DNA of 42,447 nt, taken from contig JAQUYQ010000007.1 in the NCBI GenBank assembly GCA_028691795.1, forward strand, positions 1-42,447, in the 5' to 3' direction. Origin of the DNA: Herbinix sp. (GTDB lineage Bacteria > Bacillota > Clostridia > Lachnospirales > Lachnospiraceae). The notes beneath the pieces were generated by a model. That model saw nothing but the letters and a program-made list of their open reading frames with translations, did not search any database and was not told the origin of the DNA. Shown here piece by piece: positions 978 through 28,575 of the stretch (positions are counted from its first letter, which is position 1; each line of letters starts with the position of its first letter). Made by a program: the position numbers and the translations under genes.

Positions 978-2153
978 CTACAACTCCTTAATTCGGAATA
1001 CATTAATAAATACAAAACCCATCATCATAACAATCGCAAATACGATGGAACTCATTCCAGCCAATATCCCCCAATGAAAAGAGAATGTACCGATAATCAT
1101 TGGCATGATAATTGAGCCAATACCGCCAAACAAAAGCAGGACTCCCATCGACATAGGATATGACTTGATGGTGCTGCCAAATATAGAAATTGTGATCGGA
1201 TAAACTCCTGCCATGGAAAATCCTAAACCCATAATAGCGATCGTAATGACGGTTATATTTTGTGTAGATAGTAATAACAAGTAAAAAACGACTGTCCCAA
1301 TGCTAGTTGCAAGTAGTAATGATTTTTTTGGTACTTTATCCCCTAACAATGCACATGTTAATCTTCCCGCGAGGATGACAGCCCATAATAAAGAGGCAAG
1401 CATTTGAGCATACTCAATTGTCATAATATCAGAGTCAACAAAATACTTCACAATCCAACCACTAACCGAGGATTCTACTGATAAATAAAAAAAGATGATT
1501 CCTGTAATGATCCAAAAATGCTTAAACTTTAAAAATTGATAAGATTTATTATTTAATCTTTTTGTTAAGTCATTTAGTTTCATTCTTGTAAAAAGAGTCA
1601 TAGAGATAAGCGCAAGAAAAATGATAACGCCAGCAGCTACTTTCCAACCATTGTTACCATCTAGGTTTGTACATAAAATTACTAAAAAGGGAGAACTTAA
1701 AGCTCCAACTGCAAAAATGCTATGCAATATATTAAGTGCTGCAGAACTACTGTTTGACACCTCGTTTACAACCGTATTATTAAAATTAGAAATACTGCCT
1801 CTGCTTAATCCTGTAAATAAAAACCCCAAAATAAGTAGAACAGGATTACCGGTAATGATCATAATAGAAAAGCCCATAACTACGAAACTACTTAGAAATA
1901 TAATTGATTTTTTTCTTCCCAAATAAATCGGCAACACTCCGGCGATAAATCCAGCAATTAAATTACCGACCTGATGTGCCGAGAGTAATGCTCCGCTTAC
2001 AATATTATTAAGATCATATTCCCTGCTGATCAGTGGTAATAATGATCCCAAAATCATAGAATATAAACCATTCACAGCAAAAACATAAAAACAACACTTT
2101 AAAATATATCTGTTATGCCGGTCCAGTTGTGTGTAAAATTGTGGCAATTTCAT
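978..2153 (-). CDS. MFS transporter
   Basis: A 391-residue integral membrane protein with about 12 hydrophobic helices in two halves split by a charged loop near residues 190-205. It has the MFS signature between helices 2 and 3 (YLGRKKS) and a second-half counterpart (LLGDKVPKKS). The segment SVESSVSGWIVKYF in the second half resembles the FucP/YfkF-like sugar-type MFS branch. ATG follows AGGAGATATTTCTAT. It is the last gene of the minus-strand run that starts with UbiD, 50 bp after the TauE/SafE gene, and ends before the hairpin at 834-891. Its substrate cannot be read from sequence. From context it may export or import an aromatic acid or its decarboxylated product, which is inference only. 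Confidence 0.85.
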   Translation of the reverse strand: MKLPQFYTQLDRHNRYILKCCFYVFAVNGLYSMILGSLLPLISREYDLNNIVSGALLSAHQVGNLIAGFIAGVLPIYLGRKKSIIFLSSFVVMGFSIMIITGNPVLLILGFLFTGLSRGSISNFNNTVVNEVSNSSSAALNILHSIFAVGALSSPFLVILCTNLDGNNGWKVAAGVIIFLALISMTLFTRMKLNDLTKRLNNKSYQFLKFKHFWIITGIIFFYLSVESSVSGWIVKYFVDSDIMTIEYAQMLASLLWAVILAGRLTCALLGDKVPKKSLLLATSIGTVVFYLLLLSTQNITVITIAIMGLGFSMAGVYPITISIFGSTIKSYPMSMGVLLLFGGIGSIIMPMIIGTFSFHWGILAGMSSIVFAIVMMMGFVFINVFRIKEL

Positions 2154-2203
2154 ATAGAAATATCTCCTGTCTAAATAAATATACGCGATAAAGACGATTA
2201 AAT

Positions 2204-2932
2204 TTATATGATACCGATGTTATTAATAATCAGTGAAATACCCGATAAGATAAGCATGGTTGTAAATACTTTTTTTACAATTTTTTCATTCATAACTTTA
2301 GCCAATAATATTCCAATGGCTAGTCCTGCTATCATAAACGGAACTAACAAAATGATAGTTTTTATAAGTTTTAACGTAATAATACCCATAAAAGAATATA
2401 GAATGATGCGAAAACTATTTTCGATAAGAAAGACAATGCAAAGATTTCCACGAAAAGCACTATTTGTATCAGTCGTTCTGCTTACGTAGGCTGCCAATAA
2501 AGCACCGATTCCAAATAAACCACATAGCAATCCGGATAATAAACCTATGATTCCTAAAATAAAGGGAGATGCCTTTGTATTCTTATTTTTAAATTCGCGA
2601 AATAGCATTTCGGTTCCTATAATTACAACTACAAAGCCAAATATTATTTTGAGCACCGTTGTATTTCCGTTTTTTAGAAAAAAGGTACCTGGAATACTGC
2701 CTGCGATTACCAGGCAGGTTAGAGGAAGCCATACTTTTGCAGATAAAGATTTTCTTTCTTTCCACGCAATAATTAAATTAGAGGGATATCCTAAAATTAA
2801 TTCAATTGGTGTAATATTAATATTGTTTGCTTGAAAGCTTAATATGGTACTAAACACGAGTGTATTTGCGAAGCCACACATCCCTTTTACGATATAAGCA
2901 CATACTACAGCAAAAATCATTAAATAATTCAT
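2204..2932 (-). CDS. TauE/SafE family membrane permease
   Basis: A 242-residue protein with about eight hydrophobic segments and the two internally related halves typical of the TauE/SafE (UPF0721) family. The glycine-rich LLSGLLCGLFGIGA near residues 131-144 is the family's repeated helix motif. Members are proposed to export sulfite, sulfoacetate or other organic anions. The start follows AAAGGAAAAAAG. It lies 34 bp after UbiX and 50 bp before the MFS gene in the same operon, so a role in moving an acid or other anion of the UbiD/UbiX pathway is plausible but unproven. Confidence 0.82.
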   Translation of the reverse strand: MNYLMIFAVVCAYIVKGMCGFANTLVFSTILSFQANNINITPIELILGYPSNLIIAWKERKSLSAKVWLPLTCLVIAGSIPGTFFLKNGNTTVLKIIFGFVVVIIGTEMLFREFKNKNTKASPFILGIIGLLSGLLCGLFGIGALLAAYVSRTTDTNSAFRGNLCIVFLIENSFRIILYSFMGIITLKLIKTIILLVPFMIAGLAIGILLAKVMNEKIVKKVFTTMLILSGISLIINNIGII

Positions 2933-2966
2933 TCTTTTTTCCTTTGCATCATGTCATTAATATTCG

Positions 2967-3554
2967 TTAATTCCTCCAACGTTTAAATCCATTTAATTCA
3001 ATACCGAACTTATCAAGAACCTTTCCGATGATCTGAAGGTTCATTTCCTCAAGGCTGTTAACACCACTATAATACGGAGCGACTGGTGGCATCAGGAAAG
3101 CTCCTGCCTCTGCCAGTGCCAACATATTTCTAAGGTGAATTGTACTTAAGGGGCTCTCTCTTGGAACGAGTACCAATGTCCTGCGTTCTTTCAGGGTTAC
3201 ATCTGCAGCCCGAAGAAGCAGATTATCGGAATAACCGCAGGCAATTCCTGCTACGGTCTTCATGCTGCAAGGTATGATAATCATACCTGCAGTATGGAAG
3301 GTTCCGCTGGCGATATTGCCGCCATGATCCCCGATATCATATACAGCAGTAGCGAGCTGCTCGACCTGATTCATTGCATAATCTGTTTCCAAAGCAATCG
3401 TTGTCTGCGCACCTTTGGAGATGACAAGATGTGTCTCCCAATCCGGACACTCCTTCATAATCCTGAGCAGTTGTATGGCAAGCGTTACACCGCTGGCGCC
3501 GCTCATACCTACTACAAGTCGCTTTTTCTGTTGGGAAGGTAGTTGCTGATCCAT
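2967..3554 (-). CDS. ubiX: UbiX-like flavin prenyltransferase
   Basis: A 195-residue member of the UbiX family, which joins dimethylallyl phosphate to reduced FMN to make prenylated FMN, the cofactor of UbiD decarboxylases. Visible family motifs are the flavin-binding GMSGASG (16-22), PCSMKT (95-100), the segment SDNLLLRAADV with KERRTLVLVPRE, and the PPxxPYYSG region. Length is normal, with a short hydrophilic N-terminal extension. ATG follows GAGAGGTATTAT. It is in the same operon as UbiD (7123-8826), so it most likely supplies that enzyme's cofactor. In Streptomyces the equivalent trio SCO4490-4492 (UbiD, UbiA and UbiX types) belongs to the late futalosine pathway of menaquinone synthesis. 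The family call is secure. Confidence 0.93.
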   Translation of the reverse strand: MDQQLPSQQKKRLVVGMSGASGVTLAIQLLRIMKECPDWETHLVISKGAQTTIALETDYAMNQVEQLATAVYDIGDHGGNIASGTFHTAGMIIIPCSMKTVAGIACGYSDNLLLRAADVTLKERRTLVLVPRESPLSTIHLRNMLALAEAGAFLMPPVAPYYSGVNSLEEMNLQIIGKVLDKFGIELNGFKRWRN

Positions 3555-3620
3555 ATAATACCTCTCTAAATAAAATATACTAATGTACCTGTACTATGAT
3601 AGGAACATCTCATATAAGCA

Positions 3621-4376
3621 TTAATTCATAGAACTATTCCATTTGCAAAGTTTTACCGCAAGGTAATCGATCGAAATAAATAATAAAAATCCGATTACTG
3701 CGATTGTAATGATACCAATATACATCTCAATATAGTTAATTCTTGACCAGGCATCCAGGATATAAAAACCCATTCCATAGGTTGTACCATAACCCTCCAC
3801 AAAAAAGAGGATGGATACCGCAGTACCAAGAGATACTCTGAGGCTGGTTAATAACTGAGGCAGGATGGCTGGCAGTGTGACATGACGTAACATCTGTAAT
3901 TTACTTGCGCCGGTACTTTGGATGACCTGATACATCGTCTTATCTATACTATGGATACTATCCCGGACGGATACGATGACCTGAAATACAATAACAAGAA
4001 CCATAATGATCACTTTGGAGCCATCCCGCATGCCCAATAATAGCATCGTGATTGGTAATAATGCCGTCTTAGGTATGGGATAACTAAAATAAATGAATGG
4101 ATATAAAATTAAATTTGCTTTCTTTGAGTATGCGATTAAAATGCCAATAGGTATTCCGATCAGAAGCGAAAGCACCAGGCCAGCTCCAATTCTTCGCAAG
4201 CTATATAGGATATGAAGGTACATATGATCAGTAAGCACGATACTAAAGTTTTTATATATCAAGAATGGACTGGGAATTACTTTGGTATCGGTCACCAGAT
4301 AACCAATCAGCCAAAGGAGATTAACGGAAAGGAAACCCTGCGTAAATATCATACATCGTTTCAATAATTTATTCAA
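3621..4376 (-). CDS. ABC transporter permease (SsuC/TauC/ThiX type)
   Basis: A 251-residue inner-membrane permease of the BPD_transp_1 family with about six helices. The coupling-loop region, with ASKLQMLRHVTLPAILPQLL, corresponds to the EAA motif that contacts the ATPase. The best start is the TTG at 4376, six bases after AAGG within GAAAGGAAGG. The longer frame from 4394 would put that ribosome site inside the gene. It overlaps the end of the ATPase gene by about 8 bp, so the two are translationally coupled. The closest types import sulfonates, nitrate-like anions or thiamine precursors. The UbiD/UbiA/UbiX context points instead to an aromatic acid, which is inference. Confidence 0.88.
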   Translation of the reverse strand: MNKLLKRCMIFTQGFLSVNLLWLIGYLVTDTKVIPSPFLIYKNFSIVLTDHMYLHILYSLRRIGAGLVLSLLIGIPIGILIAYSKKANLILYPFIYFSYPIPKTALLPITMLLLGMRDGSKVIIMVLVIVFQVIVSVRDSIHSIDKTMYQVIQSTGASKLQMLRHVTLPAILPQLLTSLRVSLGTAVSILFFVEGYGTTYGMGFYILDAWSRINYIEMYIGIITIAVIGFLLFISIDYLAVKLCKWNSSMN

Positions 4377-5148
4377 TTGTATCCTTCCTTTCAACCAATG
4401 GCATTAATTGTTCCCGTAATAATTGCTTCGTAATAAGATAATCCATTTTCTCCGGATATAATTCGCCAAAGTAAGCGTTACACATTTGGTATTTGATCAC
4501 ACCGGAATTGGAATCCATAACAAAGATTAAATTACCTAAATAGAGAGCTTCCTCAATGCTATGTGTTACTAGAATAGTAGTTGGTTTTTGCTGCTTCCAT
4601 ACCTGCAGGAATAATTCTCTGGCTTCTGCTCTTGTGATTTCATCCAATGCAGAAAATGGTTCATCCATTAATAATAAATCGGGCTGTAGGATAAAGGCTC
4701 TTGCTATTGCAGCCCTCTGGACTTGCCCACCGCTTAGTTCCAGAGGATATTTATCAAGAATGTCCAGGATATGCAAGGCTTTATAAATACTTGTGATTAT
4801 TTCGTGTTGAAGTTCACTCACCTGCTCCTTGCGGATTTTTAGCGCCAACATGCAATTCTCTCGAACGGTTTTCCAGGGTAGTAAACCACAGTTTTGTGGG
4901 ATGAGTCCGATTCTATGATGCTTGGGACTTAATGGTTGTCGTTGATTATTTGTGATAAAGTCTATTTTACCACTCTCGCTGGTCATAACCCCTGCCAGCG
5001 TATTTAATAAGGTTGATTTACCACAGCCGGATGGTCCCAGGATTGCCAATGCTTCACCCTGTTGAAGGTTAAAGGAGAGGTTTTGAATTACTTTGCTGAT
5101 ATTATTTTTTGTTTTATATTGAACGGATAAATGATCAATAATAAGCAT
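4369..5148 (-). CDS. ABC transporter ATP-binding protein (SsuB/TauB type)
   Basis: A 259-residue ATPase of the nitrate/sulfonate/thiamine-precursor importer group. Visible are Walker A GPSGCGKST, the Q-loop (IPQNCGLLPW), the signature LSGGQ, Walker B LLLMDEPFSALD and the H-loop ILVTHSIEEAL. The chosen ATG at 5148 is preceded by GGGGATTAT. The frame can be extended to a TTG at 5181, but that site lacks a ribosome-binding sequence. The order lipoprotein, ATPase, permease is that of a complete importer. The protein should work at the inner face of the membrane with the permease encoded just downstream. Confidence 0.92.
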   Translation of the reverse strand: MLIIDHLSVQYKTKNNISKVIQNLSFNLQQGEALAILGPSGCGKSTLLNTLAGVMTSESGKIDFITNNQRQPLSPKHHRIGLIPQNCGLLPWKTVRENCMLALKIRKEQVSELQHEIITSIYKALHILDILDKYPLELSGGQVQRAAIARAFILQPDLLLMDEPFSALDEITRAEARELFLQVWKQQKPTTILVTHSIEEALYLGNLIFVMDSNSGVIKYQMCNAYFGELYPEKMDYLITKQLLREQLMPLVERKDTIE

Positions 5149-5219
5149 ATAATCCCCATCACTTTCCCTAATGTACAGCAAGCAGGATGCATTTAGAATG
5201 TAGCATCCACCGCCAGGTA

Positions 5220-6209
5220 TTATTTTGTATAGACATCAAAAATCATTTGCTCATAAGTCAGATCAGCACTACATAAGCCTTTTGAGCTTGCCCAGCTTAT
5301 TGCAGCCTCTACATCCTCTCTTGGCGGAAGTTCACTGGTTCGAATTGGTTCCATGGTTATCTGGCCCTTCATTTCCACCGGATATCCGACCGTCTTAATG
5401 ACGATATCCTCATAACTTGCGATATCAGTTTTGTTAATATATTCCACCGCTTCATTATAAGCCTTATATAAGTTTTTAACAGCTTCGGTCTTATCATCGA
5501 GCACAGGTTTGGCAAATGCGGAAATAGCAGGATAAAGGCCGATATCATTAGCACTACCCAAATATACGGCTCCTTCATTTAAGATAATGGAGGCAAAAGG
5601 CTCCGGTAATAAGCCTAAATCAATTTGTTCATTGCGAAGTAATTCTACCCGGTCCGGAATACGAGGAACGATTTCCTTTACCACAGCGCTGCTTTCCAGA
5701 GAATTTGCAGCAAGAATATTATCTAAGGTGTAGTCAATTAAGGTGTTTTGGGATATTGCGATACTTTTTCCTTTGATTTCATTGATATTTGATATACCAC
5801 TATTCTTACCGGCTACCAATACATAATCACCATCGGTAATTCCTGTAATTTTTACATCAAAATCTGCATTCTGATAAATGCATACCCCTATGTAATCCGT
5901 TAAAACTCCGTCCAGTTCTCCGGCAAGAAAAGCCGCATCTCTGTCCTTGGCGGAGGTAAATGTTTCTAACTGCAGGTCAAGATTATATTTCTCTGCCAGA
6001 CCAAGTTCATTGATCATAACATAAGGAATAACATCATAAGAGGACATCATGCCGATGCGAAGTACAGCTTTATCCGTATCACTCTTGGTATCAGTTGAAG
6101 CAGTATTGTTTGATTGATCATCTACCGGTGATGGATCCTTGGCTGTACATCCGACAAATAACATGGTAATTATAATCAGCAGGGGTATTACGTTATATAC
6201 TTTTTTCAT
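5220..6209 (-). CDS. ABC substrate-binding lipoprotein (NMT1/THI5-like)
   Basis: A 329-residue solute-binding lipoprotein. An N-terminal signal peptide ends in the lipobox LFVGC near residue 21, followed by a Ser/Thr/Asp-rich linker. The mature part starts with VLRIGMMSSYDVIPYVMINELG and continues in the pattern of NMT1/SsuA-like proteins (AEKYNLDLQLETF, GELDGVLTDY, KGKSIAISQNTLIDY). ATG follows AAAGGAAGGATTTAAAA. It lies between ubiA and the ATPase gene. Relatives bind sulfonates, nitrate, pyrimidine thiamine precursors and aromatic acids. The same fold occurs in the menaquinone enzymes MqnA and MqnD. Together with the linked prenyltransferase and decarboxylase this suggests an aromatic carboxylate ligand, possibly a naphthoate, which is inference. 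Confidence 0.9.
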   Translation of the reverse strand: MKKVYNVIPLLIIITMLFVGCTAKDPSPVDDQSNNTASTDTKSDTDKAVLRIGMMSSYDVIPYVMINELGLAEKYNLDLQLETFTSAKDRDAAFLAGELDGVLTDYIGVCIYQNADFDVKITGITDGDYVLVAGKNSGISNINEIKGKSIAISQNTLIDYTLDNILAANSLESSAVVKEIVPRIPDRVELLRNEQIDLGLLPEPFASIILNEGAVYLGSANDIGLYPAISAFAKPVLDDKTEAVKNLYKAYNEAVEYINKTDIASYEDIVIKTVGYPVEMKGQITMEPIRTSELPPREDVEAAISWASSKGLCSADLTYEQMIFDVYTK

Positions 6210-6263
6210 TTTTAAATCCTTCCTTTGATCGTTTTAATACGTATATTATTTTTTAAATAGTAG

Positions 6264-7136
6264 TTAAAATATCAGAATATCTAATAATCCACTGACCAGC
6301 AGAACAATACTGATTAACTGGTTAATGCTATAAGAAGCGATATTGACATTGGTTAAATTCGTGGGAGACACTAGACGATATTCTATGCAAAATAAGCAGA
6401 ATATGATAAAAAGCCCAATCATATATACTACGCTCAGCTCAGCGGCTAATATGCCGATAACCACAAGACATAAAACCGTGATGATGTGAAACAGCATAGC
6501 GATCCGTAATGCATTTTTAACGCCGAATTTAACCGGAATAGAATGTAAACCATTTGCGTTATCAAATTCATAATCCTGGGAGCCGTAGATGATATCAAAG
6601 CCGGCTACCCATAAGGAATTAGCTGCTCCCATAAACAAAGGCATCAAGGTTATTTCTCCGGTTACCGCAAGCCAAGCTCCAACCGGTGCACAGGCGCAAG
6701 TGACGCCGAGAACCAAATGACACAAAAAGGTAAAACGTTTGCAATAAGAGTATACGATCATTAAAAATAATGCTGCCGGGGATAACAAAAAACAGATGAA
6801 ATTTATCTGATAAGCCCCAATTAACATAATAAGAAAGCAGATTGCCGTAAATATGATTACTTCTTTCTTTTTGATCTCGCCTTTTGGAAGCTGCCGTCCT
6901 GAGGTCCTGGGATTCCGGGCATCAATCTCGGCATCAATTACACGGTTAATTGCATTCGCTCCGGTTCTTGCACCCAGAAAGCATACGACAATCCAAAATA
7001 GGGTAGCGATGTCTGGCAAACCTTTCGCTGCAAGCAACATGGATAGAAGAGCAAAACTAAAGGAAAAGATGGTATGGGAAAACATCACTAACTTCCCATA
7101 TTCCTTCATTTTATAGATAAGCTTAGTCAATATCAT
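6264..7136 (-). CDS. UbiA-family aromatic prenyltransferase
   Basis: A 290-residue integral membrane enzyme of the UbiA family, which attaches a polyprenyl chain to an aromatic acid. The first Asp-rich motif is Asn64, Asp68 and Asp72 in AINRVIDAEIDARNPRT. The second, DIIYGSQDYEFD, lies near residues 185-200. Both bind the Mg2+-diphosphate of the prenyl donor. The NPRTSGRQLPKGE stretch is typical of the subgroup annotated as putative 4-hydroxybenzoate polyprenyltransferase, which includes the futalosine-pathway enzyme MqnP. The start at 7136 follows AAAGGTGG. An upstream ATG at 7154 would include that ribosome site. It overlaps the ubiD end by about 14 bp, so the two are coupled. No polyprenyl synthase or methyltransferase is linked. 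Confidence 0.9.
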   Translation of the reverse strand: MILTKLIYKMKEYGKLVMFSHTIFSFSFALLSMLLAAKGLPDIATLFWIVVCFLGARTGANAINRVIDAEIDARNPRTSGRQLPKGEIKKKEVIIFTAICFLIMLIGAYQINFICFLLSPAALFLMIVYSYCKRFTFLCHLVLGVTCACAPVGAWLAVTGEITLMPLFMGAANSLWVAGFDIIYGSQDYEFDNANGLHSIPVKFGVKNALRIAMLFHIITVLCLVVIGILAAELSVVYMIGLFIIFCLFCIEYRLVSPTNLTNVNIASYSINQLISIVLLVSGLLDILIF

Positions 7137-8826
7137 AATCGTTCCACCTTTCATCCACCTGATGCTTCATCTGTTGTGTCATAGTAATATCATTTGGCCA
7201 ATCTCTGGTTAAGCCTTCTTCACGCCACTTTCTAGTAGCGTCAATGCCAATCTTACCCTCTACGATAAACAAGTCTCTTTTTGCATCAATGTTATTAAAT
7301 ACCTTCCACATAACTGTGGATAGGTCCTGGGGATCGACTTCATCATCAACGACGATAACGAATTTGTCCGGATGGCATATCATGTATTCATCCAACACTT
7401 CTCTGCCGTGTCCTGGCCGTTGCTTATTTACGGTTAGGATATGATAGCAGGGAATAAGTTCATTATTTAAATTTCTCTCACATAGGCTGGTTGCGTCCAC
7501 ACCTAACCGGTTACCAAACAAAGCACGATTGGAGGAATGATCCAGAGCATCCAGTGGGCCTTCAGAAATGAACAGACTACTCTTTAAATCTACATTGTAA
7601 AGAACAGCATCCAGTACCTGTGACAAATCCTGAACATTAACGCTGTCATTTACGACTATAATTAATTTCGTATACATCATCTGGCCCATTCCCCAGATAC
7701 TATTCATTGTCTTTATAGCAGATCCCGGAAAGTTCGTCTTAATTGAGACAATAGCACAATTATGGAATACTCCTTCCAGTGGAAGATTTATATCGACCAG
7801 TTCCGGAATGATCATACGAAGAATGGGTAAAAAGATGCGTTCCGTTGCTTTTGCCATATAACAATCCTCCATCGGAGGTTTACCAACGACAGTTGCGGGG
7901 TAGATTGCATTTTTACGATGAGTAATACAGGTTACGTGAAATCGAGGATAATAATCCGCCAGTGAATAATATCCGGTATGATCGCCAAACGGACCTTCCA
8001 GGACCAGTTCTTCGTTTGGATCTACGTAGCCCTCTAATATAATTTCTGCATTACCTGGAACATAGATGTCATTGGTAATGCATTTAACCATTTTGACCCG
8101 GGATTTCCTCAGCCAACCGGCTAGCATCATCTCATCAATCATCGGGGGGAGCGGAGCAGTAGAAGCATAGGTAATTGAGGGATCACAACCAAGAGCAACG
8201 GATACCGGCATTTTTTGATTACGTTCCTGATAACCTTTATAGATTTCACTACCGTCCTTATGTTTATGCCAATGCATTCCAGTACTGGTCTTATCAAGAA
8301 TTTGCATACGATACATACCAACATTCTGACGTTTGGTTTTCAGATCCTTAGTATAAACCAGAGGAAGAGTAACAAACTTACCGGCATCCTCCGGCCAGCA
8401 TTGCAATACCGGAAGGGTAGTAAGATCAACTTCTCGTTCAATTACTTCCTGACATTTTCCCTTTCTTCTTGATCTGGAAGGAAAAACATAGAGAAGGCGT
8501 AACAGACGGGGAATGCTTTTGATCAGCCGACCGAATGATAGATAATTACTCAAATCCAGGTACTCAGAGATCATAGCGCCAAGCTCGTCCAATTCCCTTA
8601 CACCAAGGCCCATGCTCATTCTATGATAACTACCCATTGCATTGATCAGCACAGGATAGGATGAATCCTTTACCTTCTCAAAAAATAACGCAGGACCATG
8701 AGCTTTCGATATACGATCCGTTATTTCTGTAATCTCAAGCTCAGAAGACACCTCAGCGCTCACTCGCTTTAATTCCCCATGCTTTTCTAGTTCTGCAATA
8801 AATGTATGTAAATCCTTATAAGACAT
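7123..8826 (-). CDS. UbiD-family prenylated-FMN decarboxylase
   Basis: A 567-residue (de)carboxylase of the UbiD family, acting on aromatic or conjugated acids with prenylated FMN and a metal ion. The segment LEGPFGDHTGYY, at roughly residues 270-285, carries the catalytic Glu and the nearby acidic residue of the family's active site. The Arg-containing NVGMYRMQILD upstream supplies the conserved arginine. The chosen ATG at 8826 lies 9 bases after AAGG. The ATG at 8835 abuts that ribosome site and is unlikely to be used. It heads the eight-gene minus-strand operon and is followed immediately by ubiA. The pairing resembles the MqnP/MqnL/MqnM set that prenylates and decarboxylates 1,4-dihydroxy-6-naphthoate. 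A catabolic or detoxifying aromatic-acid decarboxylase is the main alternative. Confidence 0.92.
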   Translation of the reverse strand: MSYKDLHTFIAELEKHGELKRVSAEVSSELEITEITDRISKAHGPALFFEKVKDSSYPVLINAMGSYHRMSMGLGVRELDELGAMISEYLDLSNYLSFGRLIKSIPRLLRLLYVFPSRSRRKGKCQEVIEREVDLTTLPVLQCWPEDAGKFVTLPLVYTKDLKTKRQNVGMYRMQILDKTSTGMHWHKHKDGSEIYKGYQERNQKMPVSVALGCDPSITYASTAPLPPMIDEMMLAGWLRKSRVKMVKCITNDIYVPGNAEIILEGYVDPNEELVLEGPFGDHTGYYSLADYYPRFHVTCITHRKNAIYPATVVGKPPMEDCYMAKATERIFLPILRMIIPELVDINLPLEGVFHNCAIVSIKTNFPGSAIKTMNSIWGMGQMMYTKLIIVVNDSVNVQDLSQVLDAVLYNVDLKSSLFISEGPLDALDHSSNRALFGNRLGVDATSLCERNLNNELIPCYHILTVNKQRPGHGREVLDEYMICHPDKFVIVVDDEVDPQDLSTVMWKVFNNIDAKRDLFIVEGKIGIDATRKWREEGLTRDWPNDITMTQQMKHQVDERWNDYDID

Positions 8827-8896
8827 AAGCCACATCCTTCATACGAATAAGATTCTAGTACTAATTAAAACCAATATGTAGATAAGTACCACATAT

Positions 8897-8925
8897 ATAC
8901 TAAATCAGACAGAAGTATTATTCAA
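8897..8925 (-). promoter_or_regulatory. Candidate promoter of the ubiD operon
   Basis: On the minus strand, TTGAAT (8920-8925) and TAGTAT (8897-8902) are separated by 17 bp, about 70 bp before the ubiD start. It is moderately close to the sigma-A consensus. No other promoter-like pair is evident before the terminator hairpin at 9030-9062. Confidence 0.45.
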
Positions 8926-9021
8926 TAGTAGATTTATTTTAATTATTAAATCATTCCCGATCATTTGAAATTATAGACATACATTTTATGCGTTAATGAC
9001 ATATTATCTAACTTTCATAAA

Positions 9022-9062
9022 CAAAAAAACGTCAGTAGCCTCTTACATGAGGATATCTGACG
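9022..9062 (-). terminator. Intrinsic terminator, minus strand
   Basis: Inverted repeat CGTCAG...CTGACG (9030-9062) with an inner CCTC/GAGG pairing, followed on the minus strand by seven T (9023-9029). It insulates the ubiD operon from the cold-shock gene upstream. Confidence 0.75.
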
Positions 9063-9150
9063 AGTTATAAAAAGCAAATAGTACGATTGTTTAAAAACTT
9101 GTGAATCGAAAGAACCGCAATATACCGAATGGTACTTACCTATAGAAAGA

Positions 9151-9185
9151 GAGGTCGGCTAACCAACGAATGGCTAGCCGACCTC
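9151..9185 (-). terminator. Hairpin after cold-shock gene
   Basis: The inverted repeat GAGGTCGGCTA/TAGCCGACCTC lies within 20 bp of the stop codon of the cold-shock gene and is followed on the minus strand by a pyrimidine-rich TCTCTTTC. It is probably the gene's first terminator or an mRNA-stabilising 3' hairpin, backed up by the one at 9030-9062. Confidence 0.7.
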
Positions 9186-9202
9186 CCGATCGTTCATTGA
9201 TA

Positions 9203-9406
9203 TTAGTCTAAAACTACATTAACAGCCTGTAAGCCGCGTGCACCTTTAGTAATATCAAAAGTAACATTTTGGTTTTCATCCAAAGACTTAAATCCTTCTG
9301 AAGCTATTCCAGAGAAATGTACGAATACATCCTCACCATTTTCGCTGTTTGTGATAAATCCAAATCCCTTTTGAGCATTAAACCATTTTACTGTACCTTT
9401 ATTCAT
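9203..9406 (-). CDS. Cold-shock protein (CspA family)
   Basis: A 67-residue single cold-shock-domain protein that binds single-stranded RNA and DNA and acts as an RNA chaperone. The nucleic-acid motifs are KGFGFI (RNP1, residues 13-18) and VFVHF (RNP2, 27-31), and the length is standard for CspA proteins. ATG follows AGGAGGTATCTTTC. It is transcribed alone, with a strong promoter at 9542-9570 and terminators behind it. The leader of about 130 bases contains a perfect 22-bp hairpin with a T-run, described separately, which suggests control after initiation. Confidence 0.97.
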
Positions 9407-9452
9407 GAAAGATACCTCCTAATATAATATTTTTGAATATTTAGGTGAAAAT

Positions 9453-9511
9453 AAAAAATCACATATTTTTGTAAATCATTAAACTCAATAATGATTTACA
9501 AAAATATGTGA
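9453..9511 (-). promoter_or_regulatory. Terminator-like leader hairpin of the csp gene
   Basis: A perfect 22-bp inverted repeat (9459-9480 with 9490-9511, 9-base loop) is followed on the minus strand by six T. It lies between the promoter (9542-9570) and the ribosome site of the cold-shock gene. It has the form of an intrinsic terminator inside the leader, so it may be a transcription attenuator or temperature-responsive structure. The stem is very AT-rich. Confidence 0.7.
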
Positions 9512-9541
9512 ATCAAAACTTACATCTAAAACAACTTGTTA

Positions 9542-9570
9542 ATCATACCATGAATATTAGTTGTTGTCAA
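9542..9570 (-). promoter_or_regulatory. Promoter of the csp gene
   Basis: Minus-strand TTGACA (9565-9570) and TATGAT (9542-9547) are spaced by exactly 17 bp, close to the sigma-A consensus. The predicted transcript starts near 9535, giving a leader of about 130 bases before the ATG. Confidence 0.75.
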
Positions 9571-9605
9571 CTCTTATTTAAAATGAATTAAGTTCGGTGT
9601 AATTA

Positions 9606-9663
9606 TTATTGGGAACCTTATGCCTGTTGAAGATTTAAATTGTGATACACAAGGTACCAATAA
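9606..9663 (-). terminator. Possible terminator of the GntR gene
   Basis: An imperfect inverted repeat (9606-9619 with 9651-9663) lies 45 bp past the stop codon of the regulator gene. The T-rich tail is modest, so the call is tentative. Confidence 0.4.
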
Positions 9664-9707
9664 GCTCTTCTATATCGTAATTCATAGGGTCTGCATAGGG
9701 TCTATGT

Positions 9708-10421
9708 TTATTTGTCGTCAAACTGTAAATCTTTCCAATAATCAACAGAAACTTCAATCGCATTTTTTATGAGATCTATATCTTGTGCTTCAATCGCGTT
9801 TAAAATAGCAATATGAGATTCAAGTGCTATATGACCACTTTGCTGATGCTTGTGTGAATTAAGTATAGAATTTTTGAAAAAAACCATGACAAAAGAATAG
9901 ATTTTTTTGGCCAAGCTATTATGACAGGCTTCGCCTAGTAAACTGTGAAATTCCATATCATTTTTAGTTAATATATCAGGCGAAGCTTTTGCTATTTGCA
10001 ATTCTTTTAAAGAATTGACATTTTCCTTTATTAACATACGTTCTTTTTCATTTTCATGATAATGTGAAATAATCAGCTTGATAATATCAGTTTCAAATAA
10101 TTTTCTAAACTCTGATAACTCTGTCAACTCTGGGTTTATAAGAAAAAAACTAAATAATAGAGGATCGATTAAAGTATCTTTGGGTTTATCAACAATATAA
10201 GTTCCATTTCCTACTTTTACTTCTACAACGCCTAAAGCAGCTAAAATTTTCATTGCTTCTCGTACTGAACCACGGCTTACGCAGAGCCCTTCAGATATTT
10301 CTAGTTCATTTGGTAATTTATCACCAAGATGAAGTTTGTTTTCAAGTAATAATTGCTTGATTCTATTTACTACAGTGTCTACTGCAGATTCTTTTTCATT
10401 TGCAACAAATAATTTGTTCAA
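9708..10421 (-). CDS. GntR-family regulator (FadR/FCD subfamily)
   Basis: A 237-residue transcription factor. Residues about 10-78 form the GntR winged helix-turn-helix (KLPNELEISEGLCVSRGSVR, the family's classic recognition segment). The rest is an all-helical FCD ligand domain with Asp and His in NDMEFHSLLGEACHN and His in SHIAILNAIEA. The last conserved His of metal-binding FCD domains seems replaced near SVDYW. The start is a TTG at 10421, seven bases after GGAGG. It is divergent from the transketolase operon across a 282-bp gap, so it most likely represses that operon and responds to its sugar acid or an intermediate. FCD regulators commonly sense organic and sugar acids. Confidence 0.9.
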   Translation of the reverse strand: MNKLFVANEKESAVDTVVNRIKQLLLENKLHLGDKLPNELEISEGLCVSRGSVREAMKILAALGVVEVKVGNGTYIVDKPKDTLIDPLLFSFFLINPELTELSEFRKLFETDIIKLIISHYHENEKERMLIKENVNSLKELQIAKASPDILTKNDMEFHSLLGEACHNSLAKKIYSFVMVFFKNSILNSHKHQQSGHIALESHIAILNAIEAQDIDLIKNAIEVSVDYWKDLQFDDK

Positions 10422-10703: not shown

Positions 10704-11525
10704 ATGGGTAATGAGGAATTAAAAGAGATTGCTGGTCATTTAAGGTTTGAAGCAGTTAGAATGATCTATCAAGGCAAGGATGGTCACCCTGGACCAGCAC
10801 TAGGCATTGCAGATATTGTTACAACGTTATATTTTGATGAAATGAATATCGATCCTGAAAATCCAAAATGGGAAGACAGAGATAGATTCATTTTGTCAAA
10901 AGGACATGCTTGTCCTATTTATTATGCAGCACTTTCTGAAAGAGGTTATTTTGGGAAAAAAGTAAAGGAGTATAAGTTAAGAGCATTAGGAAGCAAATTC
11001 CAAGGTCATCCGGTAATGAATAAAACAGAGGGAGTTGATATGACATCAGGTTCCTTGGGAAATGGATTATCAATAGCATGCGGTATGGCCATTGCGGGAA
11101 AATATAATAAAAAGGATTATAATGTATTCGTAATAGTAGGAGATGGAGAAATTCAGGAAGGTATCATTTGGGAAGGTGCAAATACTGCAGCATCAAAAAA
11201 ACTGGATAATCTTATTTTATTCGTAGATAAAAATAATTGGCAAAGTGGTGGTGCTGTAAGTGATACGATAGGAAGCAATAACGTAAAAGAAAAATTCGAA
11301 GCGTTCAACTGGCATGTTCAAGAAATTGATGGTCATAACATTGATGAAATAAAAAAGGCCATTGCTTTAGCTAAAAGTAAAAAAGGAATGCCAAGTGCTA
11401 TTATATGCAATACGATTAAAGGAAAAGGTTTAGACTTTATGGAAAATAATAATTTATGGCATAAAGGTGTCCCAACGGATGATCAGTATGCAATTGCAGT
11501 AAAAGTACTAGGGGGTGCAAAATAA
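10704..11525 (+). CDS. Transketolase, N-terminal subunit
   Basis: A 273-residue thiamine-diphosphate-binding half of a split transketolase. The region GHPGPALGIADI and SKGHACPIYYAAL match the family's N-terminal His motifs. The ThDP motif runs from GDGEIQEG to KNN about 30 residues later. It pairs with the C-terminal half encoded directly downstream (ATG overlapping the stop, TAATG). ATG follows AAAGGAGAGTTTACAG. Two-subunit transketolases in catabolic clusters can have specialised substrates. AptA/AptB, which cleave apulose 4-phosphate in D-apiose use, are one published example. The surrounding ABC importer, oxidoisomerase and dehydrogenase argue for a pathway enzyme, not the housekeeping pentose phosphate enzyme. 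Confidence 0.93.
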   Translation: MGNEELKEIAGHLRFEAVRMIYQGKDGHPGPALGIADIVTTLYFDEMNIDPENPKWEDRDRFILSKGHACPIYYAALSERGYFGKKVKEYKLRALGSKFQGHPVMNKTEGVDMTSGSLGNGLSIACGMAIAGKYNKKDYNVFVIVGDGEIQEGIIWEGANTAASKKLDNLILFVDKNNWQSGGAVSDTIGSNNVKEKFEAFNWHVQEIDGHNIDEIKKAIALAKSKKGMPSAIICNTIKGKGLDFMENNNLWHKGVPTDDQYAIAVKVLGGAK

Positions 11526-12463
11526 TGACAAAGTTTCATGGAACACGAGAAGCATTTGCTGCGGCAATCACTGACATGGCAAAAACTGACCGTAAAATTA
11601 TGTTTATTTCACCAGATTCATTAAAGGCAATGAGAGCGACGGATTTTGCGGAGGAATTTCCAGAAGCCTATATCGAAGTGGGGATCGCAGAACAAAATGC
11701 AGTAGCAGTAGCTGCCGGATTAGCAAGCTGTGGACAAATTCCTTTTGTTGGTACATATGCAGGATTTATGACTATGAGAGCTTGTGAGCAAATGAGAACT
11801 TTTGTGGCATATCCAAAACTAAATGTTAAGTTTATTGGCATCAATGCAGGTCTAAATGGTGGAGAGCGAGAAGGTGTCACCCATCAGTTTTATGAGGATT
11901 TGGGAATTTTATCAAGTATTCCCAACTTCACAATTTTTACACCGGCGGATGGTGCACAGACGTATCACGCTGTAAAAAGAGCTGCAGAGATAGATGGACC
12001 AGTATATATAAGAGCAGGTAGTGGCCGAGAAATAGATATCTATAACAAAGAAGATCCCTTTAATCCAGATGGGGTAACGGTTTTAAAAGATTACGGTACA
12101 GATACGTTAATTCTTGCAAGTGGCTTTATATTAAATAAAGTATTGGAAGCAGCTGACTTATTATATAAAGAGAATATAAAAGTTACCGTGGGTGATGTTA
12201 ATATTTTAAATGGTGAAAATAATACAAAGATACTAAATTTAATGGCTATGACTAACAAAATTGTTACAGTGGAAGATCATAATATTAACGGCGGGTTAGG
12301 AAGTTTTATCAGTAAACTGGCGTGTGAAAATAGGCCAGTTAATGTGAAGAGGATTGGATTAAATAGCTTTGGAGAATCGGGACCTGCAAATGATTTAATT
12401 GATTATTATGGGTTTAGTCCAGAGAATATCGCAAAAACGGTAATTGAAAATTTAAAATTGTAA
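11525..12463 (+). CDS. Transketolase, C-terminal subunit
   Basis: A 312-residue partner of the preceding gene, holding the pyrimidine-binding and C-terminal domains. The segment YIEVGIAEQNAVAVAAGLA contains the conserved Glu that activates the ThDP ring, and the transketolase pattern GLNGGEREGVTHQ is visible near residue 118. The start codon overlaps the stop of the N-terminal subunit by one base, so the two products should be made in equal amounts and assemble in the cytoplasm. It transfers a two-carbon ketol unit from a ketose donor to an aldehyde acceptor. The specific donor in this cluster is unknown. Confidence 0.93.
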   Translation: MTKFHGTREAFAAAITDMAKTDRKIMFISPDSLKAMRATDFAEEFPEAYIEVGIAEQNAVAVAAGLASCGQIPFVGTYAGFMTMRACEQMRTFVAYPKLNVKFIGINAGLNGGEREGVTHQFYEDLGILSSIPNFTIFTPADGAQTYHAVKRAAEIDGPVYIRAGSGREIDIYNKEDPFNPDGVTVLKDYGTDTLILASGFILNKVLEAADLLYKENIKVTVGDVNILNGENNTKILNLMAMTNKIVTVEDHNINGGLGSFISKLACENRPVNVKRIGLNSFGESGPANDLIDYYGFSPENIAKTVIENLKL

Positions 12464-12485
12464 ATAGAATATGGAGGTATTTAAA

Positions 12486-13346
12486 ATGGATAAAATCGTA
12501 GTTTCTGTCATTGGCGCAGGTGGTAAAATGGGAACAAGGACAAGCAATAATCTTTCTAAAGTAACAGATCAAATTGAACTGTACTTTGTTGAAACATCAC
12601 TTGCAGGCATAACAAGCATTAGAGATAGAGGTTTTGATGTAACACCTATGGAAAAAGCAGTAGCAAAATCAGATGTCATAGTACTTGCAGTACCGGACAC
12701 AATAATTAAAGTAGCAAGCAAATCAGTTGTAGAGGCAATGACACCTGGAAGTGGACTGATTATTCTGGATCCAGCAGCTGCAGTTGCAAAAGAATTGGCC
12801 TTAAGGGATGATTGCACGTTTGCAGTGGCACATCCTTGCCACCCTTCCTATTTCATGGATCAGGATACTTACGAATCACGTCATGACTACTTCGGAGGTA
12901 TGGGTGGAAAGCAAGATATTGTTATGGCTAAAATACAGGGAGATGATGCAAAATTTCAAGAATGTAGAACTGTAAGTGAAATTATGTTCAGTCCAGTAAT
13001 GAAAAGCCATGTCATGGGTATCAGAGATATTGCATTTTTAGAACCTACATTAGTGGAGCTAATGGGTGCAACATGTCTTTTTGCCATGGCTGAAACTGTC
13101 GCAGAAGCTGAAAGGAGAGGCATTCCTAAAGAAGCGGCTGTGTCATTCCTGGCAGGCCATATCTATAACTTATCAGCAAATTTCCTTGGATTCTTAGGAA
13201 ATACACCGGTTTCTGATGCATGCAAAGTTGCAATTGGGTTAGGAAATAAGTTGGTTTTAAGGGATGATTGGAAGAAGATTTGGCAGGATGACGTATTAGA
13301 CAAAGTAATTGCAACAATGCTGCATCCAGAAAACCCACAAATTTAA
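12486..13346 (+). CDS. ApnO-like NAD(P)-dependent oxidoisomerase/dehydrogenase
   Basis: A 286-residue enzyme with an N-terminal dinucleotide-binding fold (VSVIGAGGKMGTR, residues 5-17) and a helical C-terminal half like that of the phosphogluconate-dehydrogenase-C group. The conserved VAHPCHPSYF near residue 115 fits the family of D-apionate oxidoisomerase (ApnO), which oxidises and rearranges a branched sugar acid. The start at 12486 follows GGAGG at 12473-12477. The ATG at 12471 contains that ribosome site and is rejected. It is 23 bp behind the transketolase subunit. The exact substrate cannot be read. Any sugar acid needing oxidation at C3 is possible, and the ApnO link comes from recalled family features. 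Confidence 0.75.
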   Translation: MDKIVVSVIGAGGKMGTRTSNNLSKVTDQIELYFVETSLAGITSIRDRGFDVTPMEKAVAKSDVIVLAVPDTIIKVASKSVVEAMTPGSGLIILDPAAAVAKELALRDDCTFAVAHPCHPSYFMDQDTYESRHDYFGGMGGKQDIVMAKIQGDDAKFQECRTVSEIMFSPVMKSHVMGIRDIAFLEPTLVELMGATCLFAMAETVAEAERRGIPKEAAVSFLAGHIYNLSANFLGFLGNTPVSDACKVAIGLGNKLVLRDDWKKIWQDDVLDKVIATMLHPENPQI

Positions 13347-13425
13347 TAAGTATTTACGAACGAGCTTAATATATGATTACCATCCTGTTAAGTGGTCTCA
13401 TATTGACGAAGAAAGGTAATATAAT

Positions 13426-14385
13426 ATGAAAATTATAGTTCTTGATGGGTATACAGAAAACCCAGGAGATTTGTCTTGGGCCGGGTTTGAAGCTTTAGGT
13501 GAGTTTATATGTTTTGATCGAACTCCAGAAGAGTTAATTAAAGAAAGAATTGCGGATGCGGATGTTGTTATCGTAAATAAGACACCCATTTCAAGGGATA
13601 CTTTGGAGGCATGTAAGAATATTAAATATATTGGCGTGTTAGCAACTGGTTATAATGTAATCGATGTCAATGCCGCAAAAGAAAAAGGAATTTTGGTATG
13701 TAATATTCCGACGTATGGAACAGCTGCAGTAAGTCAATTTGCAATCGCCATGCTACTGGAAATCTGCCACCATATTGGCCATCATAGTGATGAGGTTCAT
13801 TCAGGGAGATGGGAGAGAAATGCAGATTGGTGCTTTTGGGATTACCCATTAATCGAGTTGGCGAATAAAACAATTGGAATTATAGGCTTTGGCCGTATTG
13901 GACAAAGCACAGGAAAATTAGCTCAGGCATTTGGAATGAACGTGTTGGCCTATGATTCTTTTAAAAACCTTGACCTCGAAAGTGAAAATTGCAAATATGT
14001 AGAATTGGAAGAGCTTTTCACTAAGTCAGATGTAATTGCTTTACACTGTCCACTATTGCCAGGTACAGAAGGAATAATTAATAAAGAAACTATTTCAAAA
14101 ATGAAAGATGGCGTCATCATCTTAAATAATTCCCGAGGTCCGTTAATTATCGAACAAGACTTATGTGATGCCCTAAATAATGGGAAAGTGTATGCTGCAG
14201 GTTTAGATGTTGTGTCCTCAGAACCAATAAAAGGAGATAATCCCTTATTAAAAGCAAAAAACTGTTTCATTACACCACATATTTCTTGGGCACCCAAAGA
14301 AGCTCGGCAGAGATTGATGGATATTGCAGTAGAAAATTTGAAAGCTTTCATCTTATCTAAACCAATTAATGTCGTTAATAAATGA
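13426..14385 (+). CDS. D-2-hydroxyacid dehydrogenase (NAD-dependent)
   Basis: A 319-residue member of the D-isomer-specific 2-hydroxyacid dehydrogenase family, nearest in look to hydroxypyruvate or glyoxylate reductases. The Rossmann motif GFGRIG lies near residue 155. The catalytic Arg is in NNSRGPLI, Glu in VVSSEP and His in TPHISWAP, so the triad is complete. It follows the oxidoisomerase gene by about 80 bp, behind GAAAGG. In this cluster it may reduce a 2-keto acid such as hydroxypyruvate made by the preceding steps. No terminator is obvious after it, but a 460-bp gap separates it from the binding-protein gene. Confidence 0.92.
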   Translation: MKIIVLDGYTENPGDLSWAGFEALGEFICFDRTPEELIKERIADADVVIVNKTPISRDTLEACKNIKYIGVLATGYNVIDVNAAKEKGILVCNIPTYGTAAVSQFAIAMLLEICHHIGHHSDEVHSGRWERNADWCFWDYPLIELANKTIGIIGFGRIGQSTGKLAQAFGMNVLAYDSFKNLDLESENCKYVELEELFTKSDVIALHCPLLPGTEGIINKETISKMKDGVIILNNSRGPLIIEQDLCDALNNGKVYAAGLDVVSSEPIKGDNPLLKAKNCFITPHISWAPKEARQRLMDIAVENLKAFILSKPINVVNK

Positions 14386-14846
14386 AACCTCTAACATGAA
14401 TCTTGATTTTACACCTTGAAAACACAATATTTGGCAGTATTCTTTTATTTCGTTTCACATCTGGACTATTTAATCTATTAAAGCCGAAGTATTCATGCTA
14501 TTATATTGCCAAATAGTACTGAATATGAATTTGAGCAAAAACTATTATGTGTTGGAAGTTTCAATTTATAAATAATTTATTTATCCTAAAGTTCATCGGA
14601 TATAGATTTATAAGATTATTTTGAAATTCCACTGTTACCAGAGACAGTGACATTAGCAAAGACTGTATTGCAAAAAGAGGATGGAATATCATAATGATAA
14701 AATTGAGGGGAATGGAGGTTAGTAAAAATAAAAAAGTATAATTAATGTGAAAAAAATTTTAGGGGCAATCCAGTTTATGTTGTTATTTAAGAAGTCTGGT
14801 AATTAATTTAGCATATCAATTATTCTTATGGGAAAAGGAGAAAATA
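14386..14846 (+). other. Gap between metabolic and transport genes
   Basis: This 461-bp AT-rich stretch holds no convincing gene. A 10-bp inverted repeat (ATATTTGGCA near 14428, TGCCAAATAG near 14507) could be an operator or weak hairpin. Around 14620-14693 a short open stretch ending in KTVLQKEDGIS reads like protein but has no start, so it may be a fragment of a lost gene. It probably also holds a second promoter for the binding-protein gene. Confidence 0.4.
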
Positions 14847-16004: not shown

Positions 16005-16027
16005 TTGGATTGTATTACCGGTTTTAA

Positions 16028-16063
16028 AGAAACGGCATTTATTTATCATGAAATGCCGTTTCT
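16028..16063 (+). terminator. Intra-operon hairpin after binding-protein gene
   Basis: A perfect 13-bp inverted repeat (16028-16040 with 16051-16063) has a 10-base loop and no true T-run. It lies 23 bp after the binding-protein stop and 17 bp before the transporter start. It more likely protects the upstream mRNA or partly attenuates transcription than ends it. Confidence 0.6.
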
Positions 16064-16080
16064 AAAATTTAATAAAGGAT

Positions 16081-18549: not shown

Positions 18550-18651
18550 TAATGTGCTATTGAGTATTGCTACCTAATCATCAGGGTTCGTTTTTTAAGA
18601 AAATATTAGGGTTTATGATGTTATTATATTGTTTTGCAAGGAGAACATACA

Positions 18652-28468: not shown

Positions 28469-28492
28469 TCGTATGAGTACGTAAAATGACCT

Positions 28493-28512
28493 TGCACACA
28501 TCCTGCACACAT
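28493..28512. repeat. Tandem arm-type integrase site, right end
   Basis: TGCACACAT occurs twice 11 bp apart (28493-28501 and 28504-28512). Another copy lies at the left end (25285-25293), with a near match at 25234. Such repeats next to an integrase gene and att core are typical arm-type binding sites. This is inferred from position. Confidence 0.5.
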
Positions 28513-28532
28513 GATTTTTGGACACAAAAAAA

Positions 28533-28569
28533 CAGGAAAGCTTGATTTTACTAGCTTTCCTGCCATTTT
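28533..28569. terminator. Bidirectional terminator of int and tRNA-Gly
   Basis: The stem CAGGAAAGCT/AGCTTTCCTG (28533-28542 with 28553-28562) is followed by ATTTTT on the plus strand and by seven T on the minus strand (28526-28532). It can end both the integrase transcript and the tRNA transcript. Confidence 0.85.
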
Positions 28570-28575
28570 TCATTA

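What the first reader, a model, noticed from the sequence alone, without database searches (positions are those of the whole stretch)
978..8826. Candidate aromatic-acid or quinone-precursor salvage operon
Eight co-directional genes with short gaps combine a complete NMT1-type ABC importer with UbiA, UbiD and UbiX homologues plus two further transporters. The UbiD/UbiA/UbiX trio parallels the late futalosine menaquinone genes (SCO4490-4492 type), yet none of MqnA-D, a methyltransferase or a polyprenyl synthase is present. An importer in place of the early steps suggests that an external aromatic acid, such as a dihydroxynaphthoate, is taken up, prenylated and decarboxylated. Sequence shows the families and their order; the substrate is inference.
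Basis: partly seen in the sequence, partly recalled or inferred. Interest (0 to 1): 0.75.

Follow-up and report, generated by a model that had tools for sequence, protein, structure and literature searches.

The report
Quinone-precursor import and finishing operon
An anaerobic bacterium's operon joins a nutrient importer to the last enzymes of vitamin K-like quinone synthesis, while the known first half of that pathway was not found in its genome or its close relatives', so it probably lives on quinone building blocks made by neighbours; the importer's cargo has not been tested.

Summary
Confirmed: eight co-directional genes. The UbiD is a curated match to the menaquinone decarboxylase MqnL (TIGR03701, 639 bits, cut-off 496). 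UbiD–UbiA–lipoprotein–ATPase–permease–UbiX is a conserved cassette in Clostridia and some Enterococcus-like Bacilli; TauE and MFS are not part of it. In an even sample of the class, 16 of 17 MqnL loci carry importer genes within 10 kb, against 0 of 17 control UbiD loci. None of those 17 genomes has MqnA/D (weak hits are lipoproteins) or a MenB over cut-off. The six operon genomes of the window's genus lack MqnA/D and MenB and have no MqnC or MenG over cut-off. The window's genome has two Ndh2–polyprenyl synthase–MenA-like loci; in the genus all 6 operon genomes have this Ndh2, against 8 of 28 others. Best reading: import of a carboxylated dihydroxynaphthalene, most likely 1,4-dihydroxy-6-naphthoate, then prenylation and decarboxylation to demethylmenaquinone for Ndh2-linked, perhaps extracellular, electron transfer. 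Ligand and product are inferred. Some relatives add a doubled U32 protein and a class III aminotransferase, unexplained. Two papers seen in part ask for such transporters or say none was described.

The parts
7123..8835 (-). UbiD-family decarboxylase, MqnL type (start possibly 8826)
   Evidence: TIGR03701 639 bits, cut-off 495.9; R176, E264, E268 invariant in 9 aligned sequences
6264..7154 (-). UbiA-family prenyltransferase, MqnP-like
   Evidence: PF01040; better on three MqnP models (287, 243, 217 bits) than on proteobacterial UbiA (125), none over cut-off; N70, D74, D78, D194, D198 invariant in 8 aligned sequences
5220..6209 (-). Lipoprotein substrate-binding protein, NMT1/SsuA type
   Evidence: PF13379 44.4 bits, cut-off 24.7; C21 invariant in 56 aligned sequences; model mean pLDDT 90.1
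4369..5181 (-). ABC transporter ATPase
   Evidence: PF00005
3621..4394 (-). ABC transporter permease
   Evidence: PF00528
2967..3554 (-). UbiX-family flavin prenyltransferase (maker of the UbiD cofactor, recalled)
   Evidence: TIGR00421 219 bits, cut-off 108.9; NF004685 241, cut-off 188
2204..2932 (-). TauE/SafE permease, co-directional, membership doubtful
   Evidence: PF01925; no counterpart in the loci held (tblastn, E up to 1e-10)
978..2153 (-). MFS transporter, co-directional, membership doubtful
   Evidence: PF07690; one 71% identical copy about 1 kb upstream of the cassette in Geosporobacter L085, opposite strand

Best explanation
A salvage cassette for a prenylquinone. The lipoprotein catches a soluble carboxylated dihydroxynaphthalene, most likely 1,4-dihydroxy-6-naphthoate released by bacteria with the futalosine pathway, and the permease and ATPase bring it in. 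UbiX makes the prenylated flavin for UbiD. UbiA attaches a polyprenyl chain from a synthase encoded elsewhere in the genome, and UbiD removes the carboxylate, giving demethylmenaquinol. No MenG was found, so the product stays demethylated. An NADH dehydrogenase of the Ndh2 type then uses it to pass electrons on, perhaps outside the cell. Shown: gene families, their linkage, absence of the searched upstream genes, co-occurrence with Ndh2. Inferred: ligand, reaction order, product, electron route.
For: MqnL match over cut-off. Cassette conserved: of 80 loci found with the binding protein, 45 hold UbiD and UbiA and 37 also ATPase and permease. In the class sample, 16 of 17 MqnL loci have importer genes (15 the binding protein), against 0 of 17 loci of other UbiDs for binding protein, permease or UbiA. 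Known first halves: no PF02621 match in the 6 genus genomes; in 0 of 17 class genomes at 128 bits or more, and the weak hits there are lipoproteins; MenB over cut-off in 1 of 67 genomes; no MqnC or MenG over cut-off in 12 genomes. Quinone use: Ndh2 in 6 of 6 operon genomes and 8 of 28 others of the genus; two Ndh2-polyprenyl synthase-MenA-like loci in the window's genome. In some other genera the cassette lies beside Ndh2, polyprenyl synthase, ApbE and PF07456 genes. The UbiD of Moorella thermoacetica, whose genome has MqnE and MqnC over cut-off, falls among the cassette UbiDs and E. coli UbiD outside them.
Against: No ligand evidence. By predicted fold the binding protein is as close to sulfonate and bicarbonate binders as to PqqT. 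UbiA is below every MqnP cut-off. In one search the UbiDs of other MqnA/D-bearing genomes (Thermincola, Gorillibacterium, Paenibacillus) form a separate branch outside the cassette UbiDs. Both Moorella genomes carry the cassette although they have a strong PF02621 gene, so import is not confined to genomes lacking futalosine genes. Six Enterococcus-like genomes have the importer without any UbiD match. U32 and aminotransferase genes, beside UbiD/UbiA in 16 and 14 of 80 loci, are not needed by this scheme. The window's genome is 82% complete, and MqnE, MqnB, MenA and other Men genes were not searched for by their own models.
Confidence: 0.7

Rival explanations
1. The cassette ends an unknown third route to a naphthoquinone or makes a quinone not yet described, with the U32 hydroxylase-like protein and the class III aminotransferase as extra enzymes; the importer brings in an earlier or different aromatic compound.
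For: U32 in 17 and aminotransferase in 15 of 80 loci, 16 and 14 of them with UbiD or UbiA in the locus. The U32 protein is two U32 halves fused, the first with four invariant cysteines, and the NCBIfam matches of the two members scanned are led by TrhP and UbiU, below cut-off. No class-sample genome with MqnL has MqnA/D or a MenB over cut-off.
Against: U32 of this type (590 bits or more) is found in 15 of 53 genomes searched and is absent from five of the six genus genomes, the window's included, so it is not required.
Confidence: 0.15
2. 4-Hydroxybenzoate or a similar benzoate is imported, prenylated and decarboxylated to a benzoquinone-type lipid, as in ubiquinone synthesis.
For: UbiA, UbiD and UbiX all have ubiquinone-pathway namesakes; U32 proteins that match UbiU below cut-off lie nearby in some loci.
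Against: UbiD scores 639 bits on the MqnL model against 413 on the E. coli-type UbiD model; UbiA 287 on MqnP against 125 on proteobacterial UbiA. No UbiE-type methyltransferase over cut-off in 12 genomes.
Confidence: 0.08
3. Catabolic or detoxifying decarboxylation of a plant aromatic acid, or an importer for an unrelated sulfonate that happens to lie in the operon.
For: NMT1/SsuA-type importer; TauE and MFS transporters follow in this genome.
Against: A UbiA prenyltransferase accompanies UbiD in 17 of 17 class loci and in none of 17 control UbiD loci. SsuA model 76 bits, cut-off 163.5. The cassette sits in Ndh2-polyprenyl synthase-ApbE loci in some genera.
Confidence: 0.05

Closest known systems
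Late futalosine genes mqnP-mqnL-mqnM (Ravcheev and Thiele 2016, PMC4746308; section 10, the first part of section 13 and search passages read)
   Same: UbiA, UbiD and UbiX homologues of the predicted prenylation and decarboxylation steps; TIGR03701 match
   Different: That paper reports these genes in every genome with the Mqn pathway and in no other; here PF02621 and MqnC were not found in the window's genus at curated scores, and an ABC importer is joined on
External naphthoate use by quinone auxotrophs: Lactiplantibacillus plantarum (PMC10746273, passages) and gut isolates (PMC5738691, passages)
   Same: An external quinone precursor feeds electron transfer in bacteria that cannot make it
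   Different: The L. plantarum work names DmkA/MenA-type enzymes and leaves uptake open; here a UbiD-UbiA-UbiX set comes with its own importer
Flavin-based extracellular electron transfer locus (gene set recalled from Light et al. 2018, not read here)
   Same: Ndh2, polyprenyl synthase, MenA-like prenyltransferase, lipoprotein and ApbE in the same genus
   Different: The cassette is not next to it in the window's genus but is in some other genera; EetA/EetB-like genes were not seen in the two window-genome stretches
PqqT, binding protein for pyrroloquinoline quinone (PDB 9b1u)
   Different: 15-16% identity in the structural alignment; SsuA and CmpA fit as well

Membership tests
Complete futalosine (Mqn) pathway | MqnA and MqnD (PF02621) | tested here: not met
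   no match in 6 of 6 genus genomes. In the 17 class genomes no hit of 128 bits or more; weak hits in 6, of 22 to 47 bits, three of them over Pfam's cut-off of 26; all six start as lipoproteins
Complete futalosine (Mqn) pathway | MqnC (TIGR03699) | tested here: not met
   over cut-off in 0 of 12 genomes, 9 of them with the cassette; best 67 bits, cut-off 428
Complete futalosine (Mqn) pathway | MqnE and MqnB | not tested
   no search with their own models; the related radical SAM model MqnC gave only weak hits
MqnL decarboxylase | TIGR03701 over curated cut-off | tested here: met
   639.2 bits, cut-off 495.9
MqnL decarboxylase | decarboxylates prenylated 1,4-dihydroxy-6-naphthoate | not testable with these tools
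   needs an enzyme assay
MqnP prenyltransferase | curated MqnP model over cut-off | tested here: inconclusive
   287 of 430, 243 of 420 and 217 of 375 bits; better than UbiA models but below all three cut-offs
Classical Men pathway | MenB (TIGR01929) | tested here: not met
   no match in 9 of 9 genomes with MqnL; over cut-off in 1 of 67 further genomes, 27 more with weaker hits
NMT1/SsuA-type ABC importer | secreted binding protein, permease and ATPase together | tested here: met
   PF13379, PF00528, PF00005 over cut-off; lipobox-like start, C21 invariant
Aliphatic sulfonate binder SsuA | TIGR01728 over curated cut-off | tested here: not met
   76 bits, cut-off 163.5
MenG/UbiE methylation | TIGR01934 over cut-off | tested here: not met
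   0 of 12 genomes, best 88 bits, cut-off 158
Flavin-based extracellular electron transfer locus | Ndh2, DmkB, DmkA, FmnB and flavinylated lipoprotein (set recalled) | tested here: inconclusive
   Ndh2, polyprenyl synthase, MenA-like gene and a partial lipoprotein in the window's genome; ApbE only in relatives, the contig ends there

The most novel reading that the evidence does not exclude
In the window's class, bacteria with MqnL do not make the naphthoate by a known route and live on a traded, vitamin-like exometabolite through a dedicated importer family; in the branch with the doubled U32 protein and aminotransferase the imported ring is changed further, into a quinone that has not been described.
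Probability: 0.2. Interest if true: 0.92.

Novelty: new variant of a known kind. Interest (0 to 1): 0.78.

Why it matters
Exchange of quinone precursors between microbes has been proposed; one paper says that importers must first be predicted and then tested (PMC4746308, section 13, first part) and another that none had been described (PMC5738691, passage). This cassette names candidate genes in cultured species, makes the idea directly testable, and suggests that electron transfer in many fermenting anaerobes depends on neighbours.

Tried and rejected
Rfam scan of the window at gathering scores: only a tRNA, so no listed riboswitch over the operon. Weak PF02621 hits: G085 (L034) is a lipoprotein beside a permease. 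Of the 12 genomes with weak hits, eleven were inspected, and the twelfth (G527) gave the same contig position as G321; with the hit in G097 all twelve stretches inspected begin with a hydrophobic stretch and a cysteine, nine found by pattern and three by eye. UbiA tree: E. coli UbiA sits on a branch of 2.85, so the tree says nothing on MqnP against UbiA. The UbiD tree is FastTree only, with flagged long branches. A fold search with the U32 model gave only loose matches (TM-score by query length 0.26 or less in the 50 rows listed). A role for the MFS or TauE was not found. Paper searches gave nothing on the point. The PF02621 and MenB searches covered 67 of the 96 genomes first wanted, because of limits on the list. 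Of the 29 left out, four had been searched under a G handle; among the other 25, L078, L082 and L141 do hold UbiD or UbiA.

Against my reading: both Moorella genomes and Gorillibacterium carry cassette genes with strong PF02621 genes. One class genome (G164, L174) has no importer gene on its contig stretch and one (L182) has ATPase and permease but no binding protein. Of 32 genomes with the binding protein and mostly no linked UbiD, 24 had no MqnL over cut-off. The control took 17 of the 27 class genomes that have only sub-cut-off UbiD, in order of listing and not at random. The queries came from loci gathered with the binding protein, and at least four class genomes are the same assemblies as such loci.
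Full report
What is there. The window's - strand carries eight co-directional ORFs between 978 and 8835, at most 66 nt apart and overlapping by up to 32 nt. Pfam and NCBIfam name them, in transcription order, UbiD, UbiA, an NMT1/SsuA-type binding lipoprotein, an ABC ATPase, a BPD_transp_1 permease, UbiX, a TauE/SafE permease and an MFS transporter. The UbiD is over the curated cut-off of the menaquinone decarboxylase model TIGR03701 (639.2 against 495.9 bits). The UbiA scores higher on three MqnP models (287, 243, 217) than on proteobacterial UbiA (125) but passes none of their cut-offs. The binding protein scores 76 bits on the SsuA model, whose cut-off is 163.5.

What belongs to it. TIGR03701 is over cut-off in 9 of 117 genomes, the window's own and its relatives: six of the window's genus, counting its own, and three from other families of the order. 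Neighbourhoods show UbiD-UbiA-binding protein-ATPase-permease-UbiX complete in G003 and G016, cut by contig ends in G027, G028 and G002, reordered in G097 and G085, and without importer in G081. TauE and MFS do not recur, except one 71% identical MFS near a Geosporobacter copy. So the unit is the first six genes.

How widespread. A scan of named genomes with the binding-protein alignment kept the best 80 of 92 confirmed places, from Herbinix and other Lachnospiraceae to Caproiciproducens, Clostridium, Geosporobacter, Enterococcus, Bacillus and Moorella. Of the 80, 45 hold UbiD and UbiA, 37 of these also ATPase and permease, 25 all six; UbiA and binding protein lie on one strand within 1.5 kb in 40 of the 45. 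These loci were chosen by the binding protein, so an even draw was also made: of 393 class genomes, drawn at 90% completeness or more (the window's own is 82%), 18 have TIGR03701 over cut-off, counting the window's. Around the other 17, importer genes are present in 16 (binding protein in 15, one of them a fragment at a contig end) and UbiA in 17. As a control, UbiD genes below the cut-off from 17 of the 27 other genomes with a match in that draw have binding protein, permease and UbiA in 0 of 17.

Is a known first half present? PF02621 (MqnA and MqnD) has no match in the six genus genomes; in G085 and G097 there are weak hits of 36 and 32 bits. In 67 further genomes, matches of 128 bits or more occur only in six: two Moorella, Gorillibacterium, two Paenibacillus and Thermincola. 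Twelve others have hits of 47 bits or less, six of them over Pfam's cut-off of 26. The weak hits inspected, those of G085, G097 and eleven of the twelve (the last is the same contig place as another), start as lipoproteins, that is, as binding proteins and not as MqnA or MqnD. None of the 17 class genomes is among the six. MqnC is over cut-off in 0 of 12 and MenG/UbiE in 0 of 12 genomes. MenB gives no match in the nine genomes with MqnL and is over cut-off in 1 of 67, Bacillus sp. 522_BSPC. The 12 genomes include three without MqnL. Completeness of the six genus genomes runs from 77 to 98%.

What uses the quinone. The window's genome has two. Stretches around them show Ndh2, polyprenyl synthase and a MenA-like prenyltransferase, followed in one by a lipoprotein fragment at the contig end; in most of the relatives looked at a lipoprotein and ApbE follow. 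The MenA-like protein scanned has 1,4-dihydroxy-2-naphthoate prenyltransferases as its best models, below cut-off. Hence the organism may use two naphthoates: DHNA through the MenA-like enzyme, and the 6-naphthoate through the operon. In some other genera the cassette lies beside Ndh2, polyprenyl synthase, ApbE and PF07456 genes; their likeness to the flavin-based extracellular electron transfer locus is recalled.

The ligand. A model of the binding protein (mean pLDDT 90.1) matches CmpA, SsuA, TauA and PqqT with Z between 25 and 27, which I take as no clear winner, and MqnD (2czl) at 19.9 and MqnA with 3-hydroxybenzoate (6o9a) at 15.9. By sequence profile the first PDB matches are PqqT (E 2.5e-5; named) and SsuA (9.5e-5). 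This allows, but does not show, an aromatic ligand. The choice of 1,4-dihydroxy-6-naphthoate rests on pathway logic: DHNA loses its carboxylate at the MenA step and would need no UbiD (recalled), whereas the futalosine intermediate does.

What does not fit. A U32 protein (17 loci) and a class III aminotransferase (15) recur near the cassette (names from the members scanned). The U32 protein has four invariant cysteines (C178, C185, C201, C205) and a second half without them that aligns to the first (HHalign probability 99%). Matches of at least 590 bits are found in 15 of 53 genomes, among them G027 of the genus but not G000, G002, G003, G016 or G028. They may alter the ring; I have no mechanism. 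Both Moorella genomes carry the cassette with one strong PF02621 gene, and in M. thermoacetica MqnE and MqnC are over cut-off beside it, so import can accompany synthesis. UbiDs of Thermincola, Gorillibacterium and Paenibacillus, which have strong PF02621 genes, branch outside the cassette UbiDs. Six Enterococcus-like genomes have the importer and no UbiD match at all.

What is known. Ravcheev and Thiele (PMC4746308; section 10, the first part of section 13 and passages read) predicted MqnP, MqnL and MqnM, reported them only with the whole pathway, and asked for transporters of quinone precursors. PMC5738691 (passages) says that such transporters had not been described. PMC10746273 (passages) leaves quinone uptake in L. 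plantarum open. In the open-access library the words MqnL, MqnP or MqnM occur in ten papers, of which two are on the subject by title, and six phrases for a DHNA or naphthoate transporter occur in none, with looser terms, listed no paper on such a transporter. Subscription papers were not searched. I rate it a new variant of a known kind: known late enzymes, joined to an importer for which I saw no precedent.

Noticed in passing
L085:12413-15641, L084:12449-15674, L027:10765-13995 and others: A fused double U32 protein (best matches TrhP and UbiU) and a class III aminotransferase recur near the quinone cassette in 17 and 15 of 80 loci; role unknown.
   Followed up: partly
window 8836-9707: A small ORF that looks like a cold-shock protein (by eye) lies on the - strand between UbiD and the GntR gene (9708-10421).
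   Followed up: no
window 27251-28647: A phage-type integrase gene ends about 100 nt from a tRNA-Gly gene, as at the edge of an integrated element.
   Followed up: no
window 29454-31862: An 802-residue protein of BspA-type leucine-rich repeats.
   Followed up: no
window 10704-19617: Transketolase-like gene, a 2-hydroxyacid dehydrogenase and an ABC importer with a Peripla_BP_4 binding protein, next to a GntR regulator.
   Followed up: no
L212:6908-10830 (Moorella thermoacetica): A futalosine gene cluster with MqnE, MqnC, an MTA-phosphorylase-like gene and the genome's only PF02621 match.
   Followed up: partly
L185:11619-15032 and L186-L188: In four genomes of one genus (one is Ruminiclostridium papyrosolvens) a protein of about 1137 residues, without NCBIfam match in the one scanned, sits between UbiA and the binding protein.
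   Followed up: partly
L101, L103, L109, L110, L112, L113: Enterococcus-like genomes carry the importer genes but no UbiD match at all, so the importer may also serve another route.
   Followed up: partly
window 7123-8835: This UbiD and the eight others aligned are about 567-625 residues long; Pfam sees two UbiD C-terminal stretches in the window's, and TIGR03701 matches a second, partial C-terminal piece in most of them.
   Followed up: no
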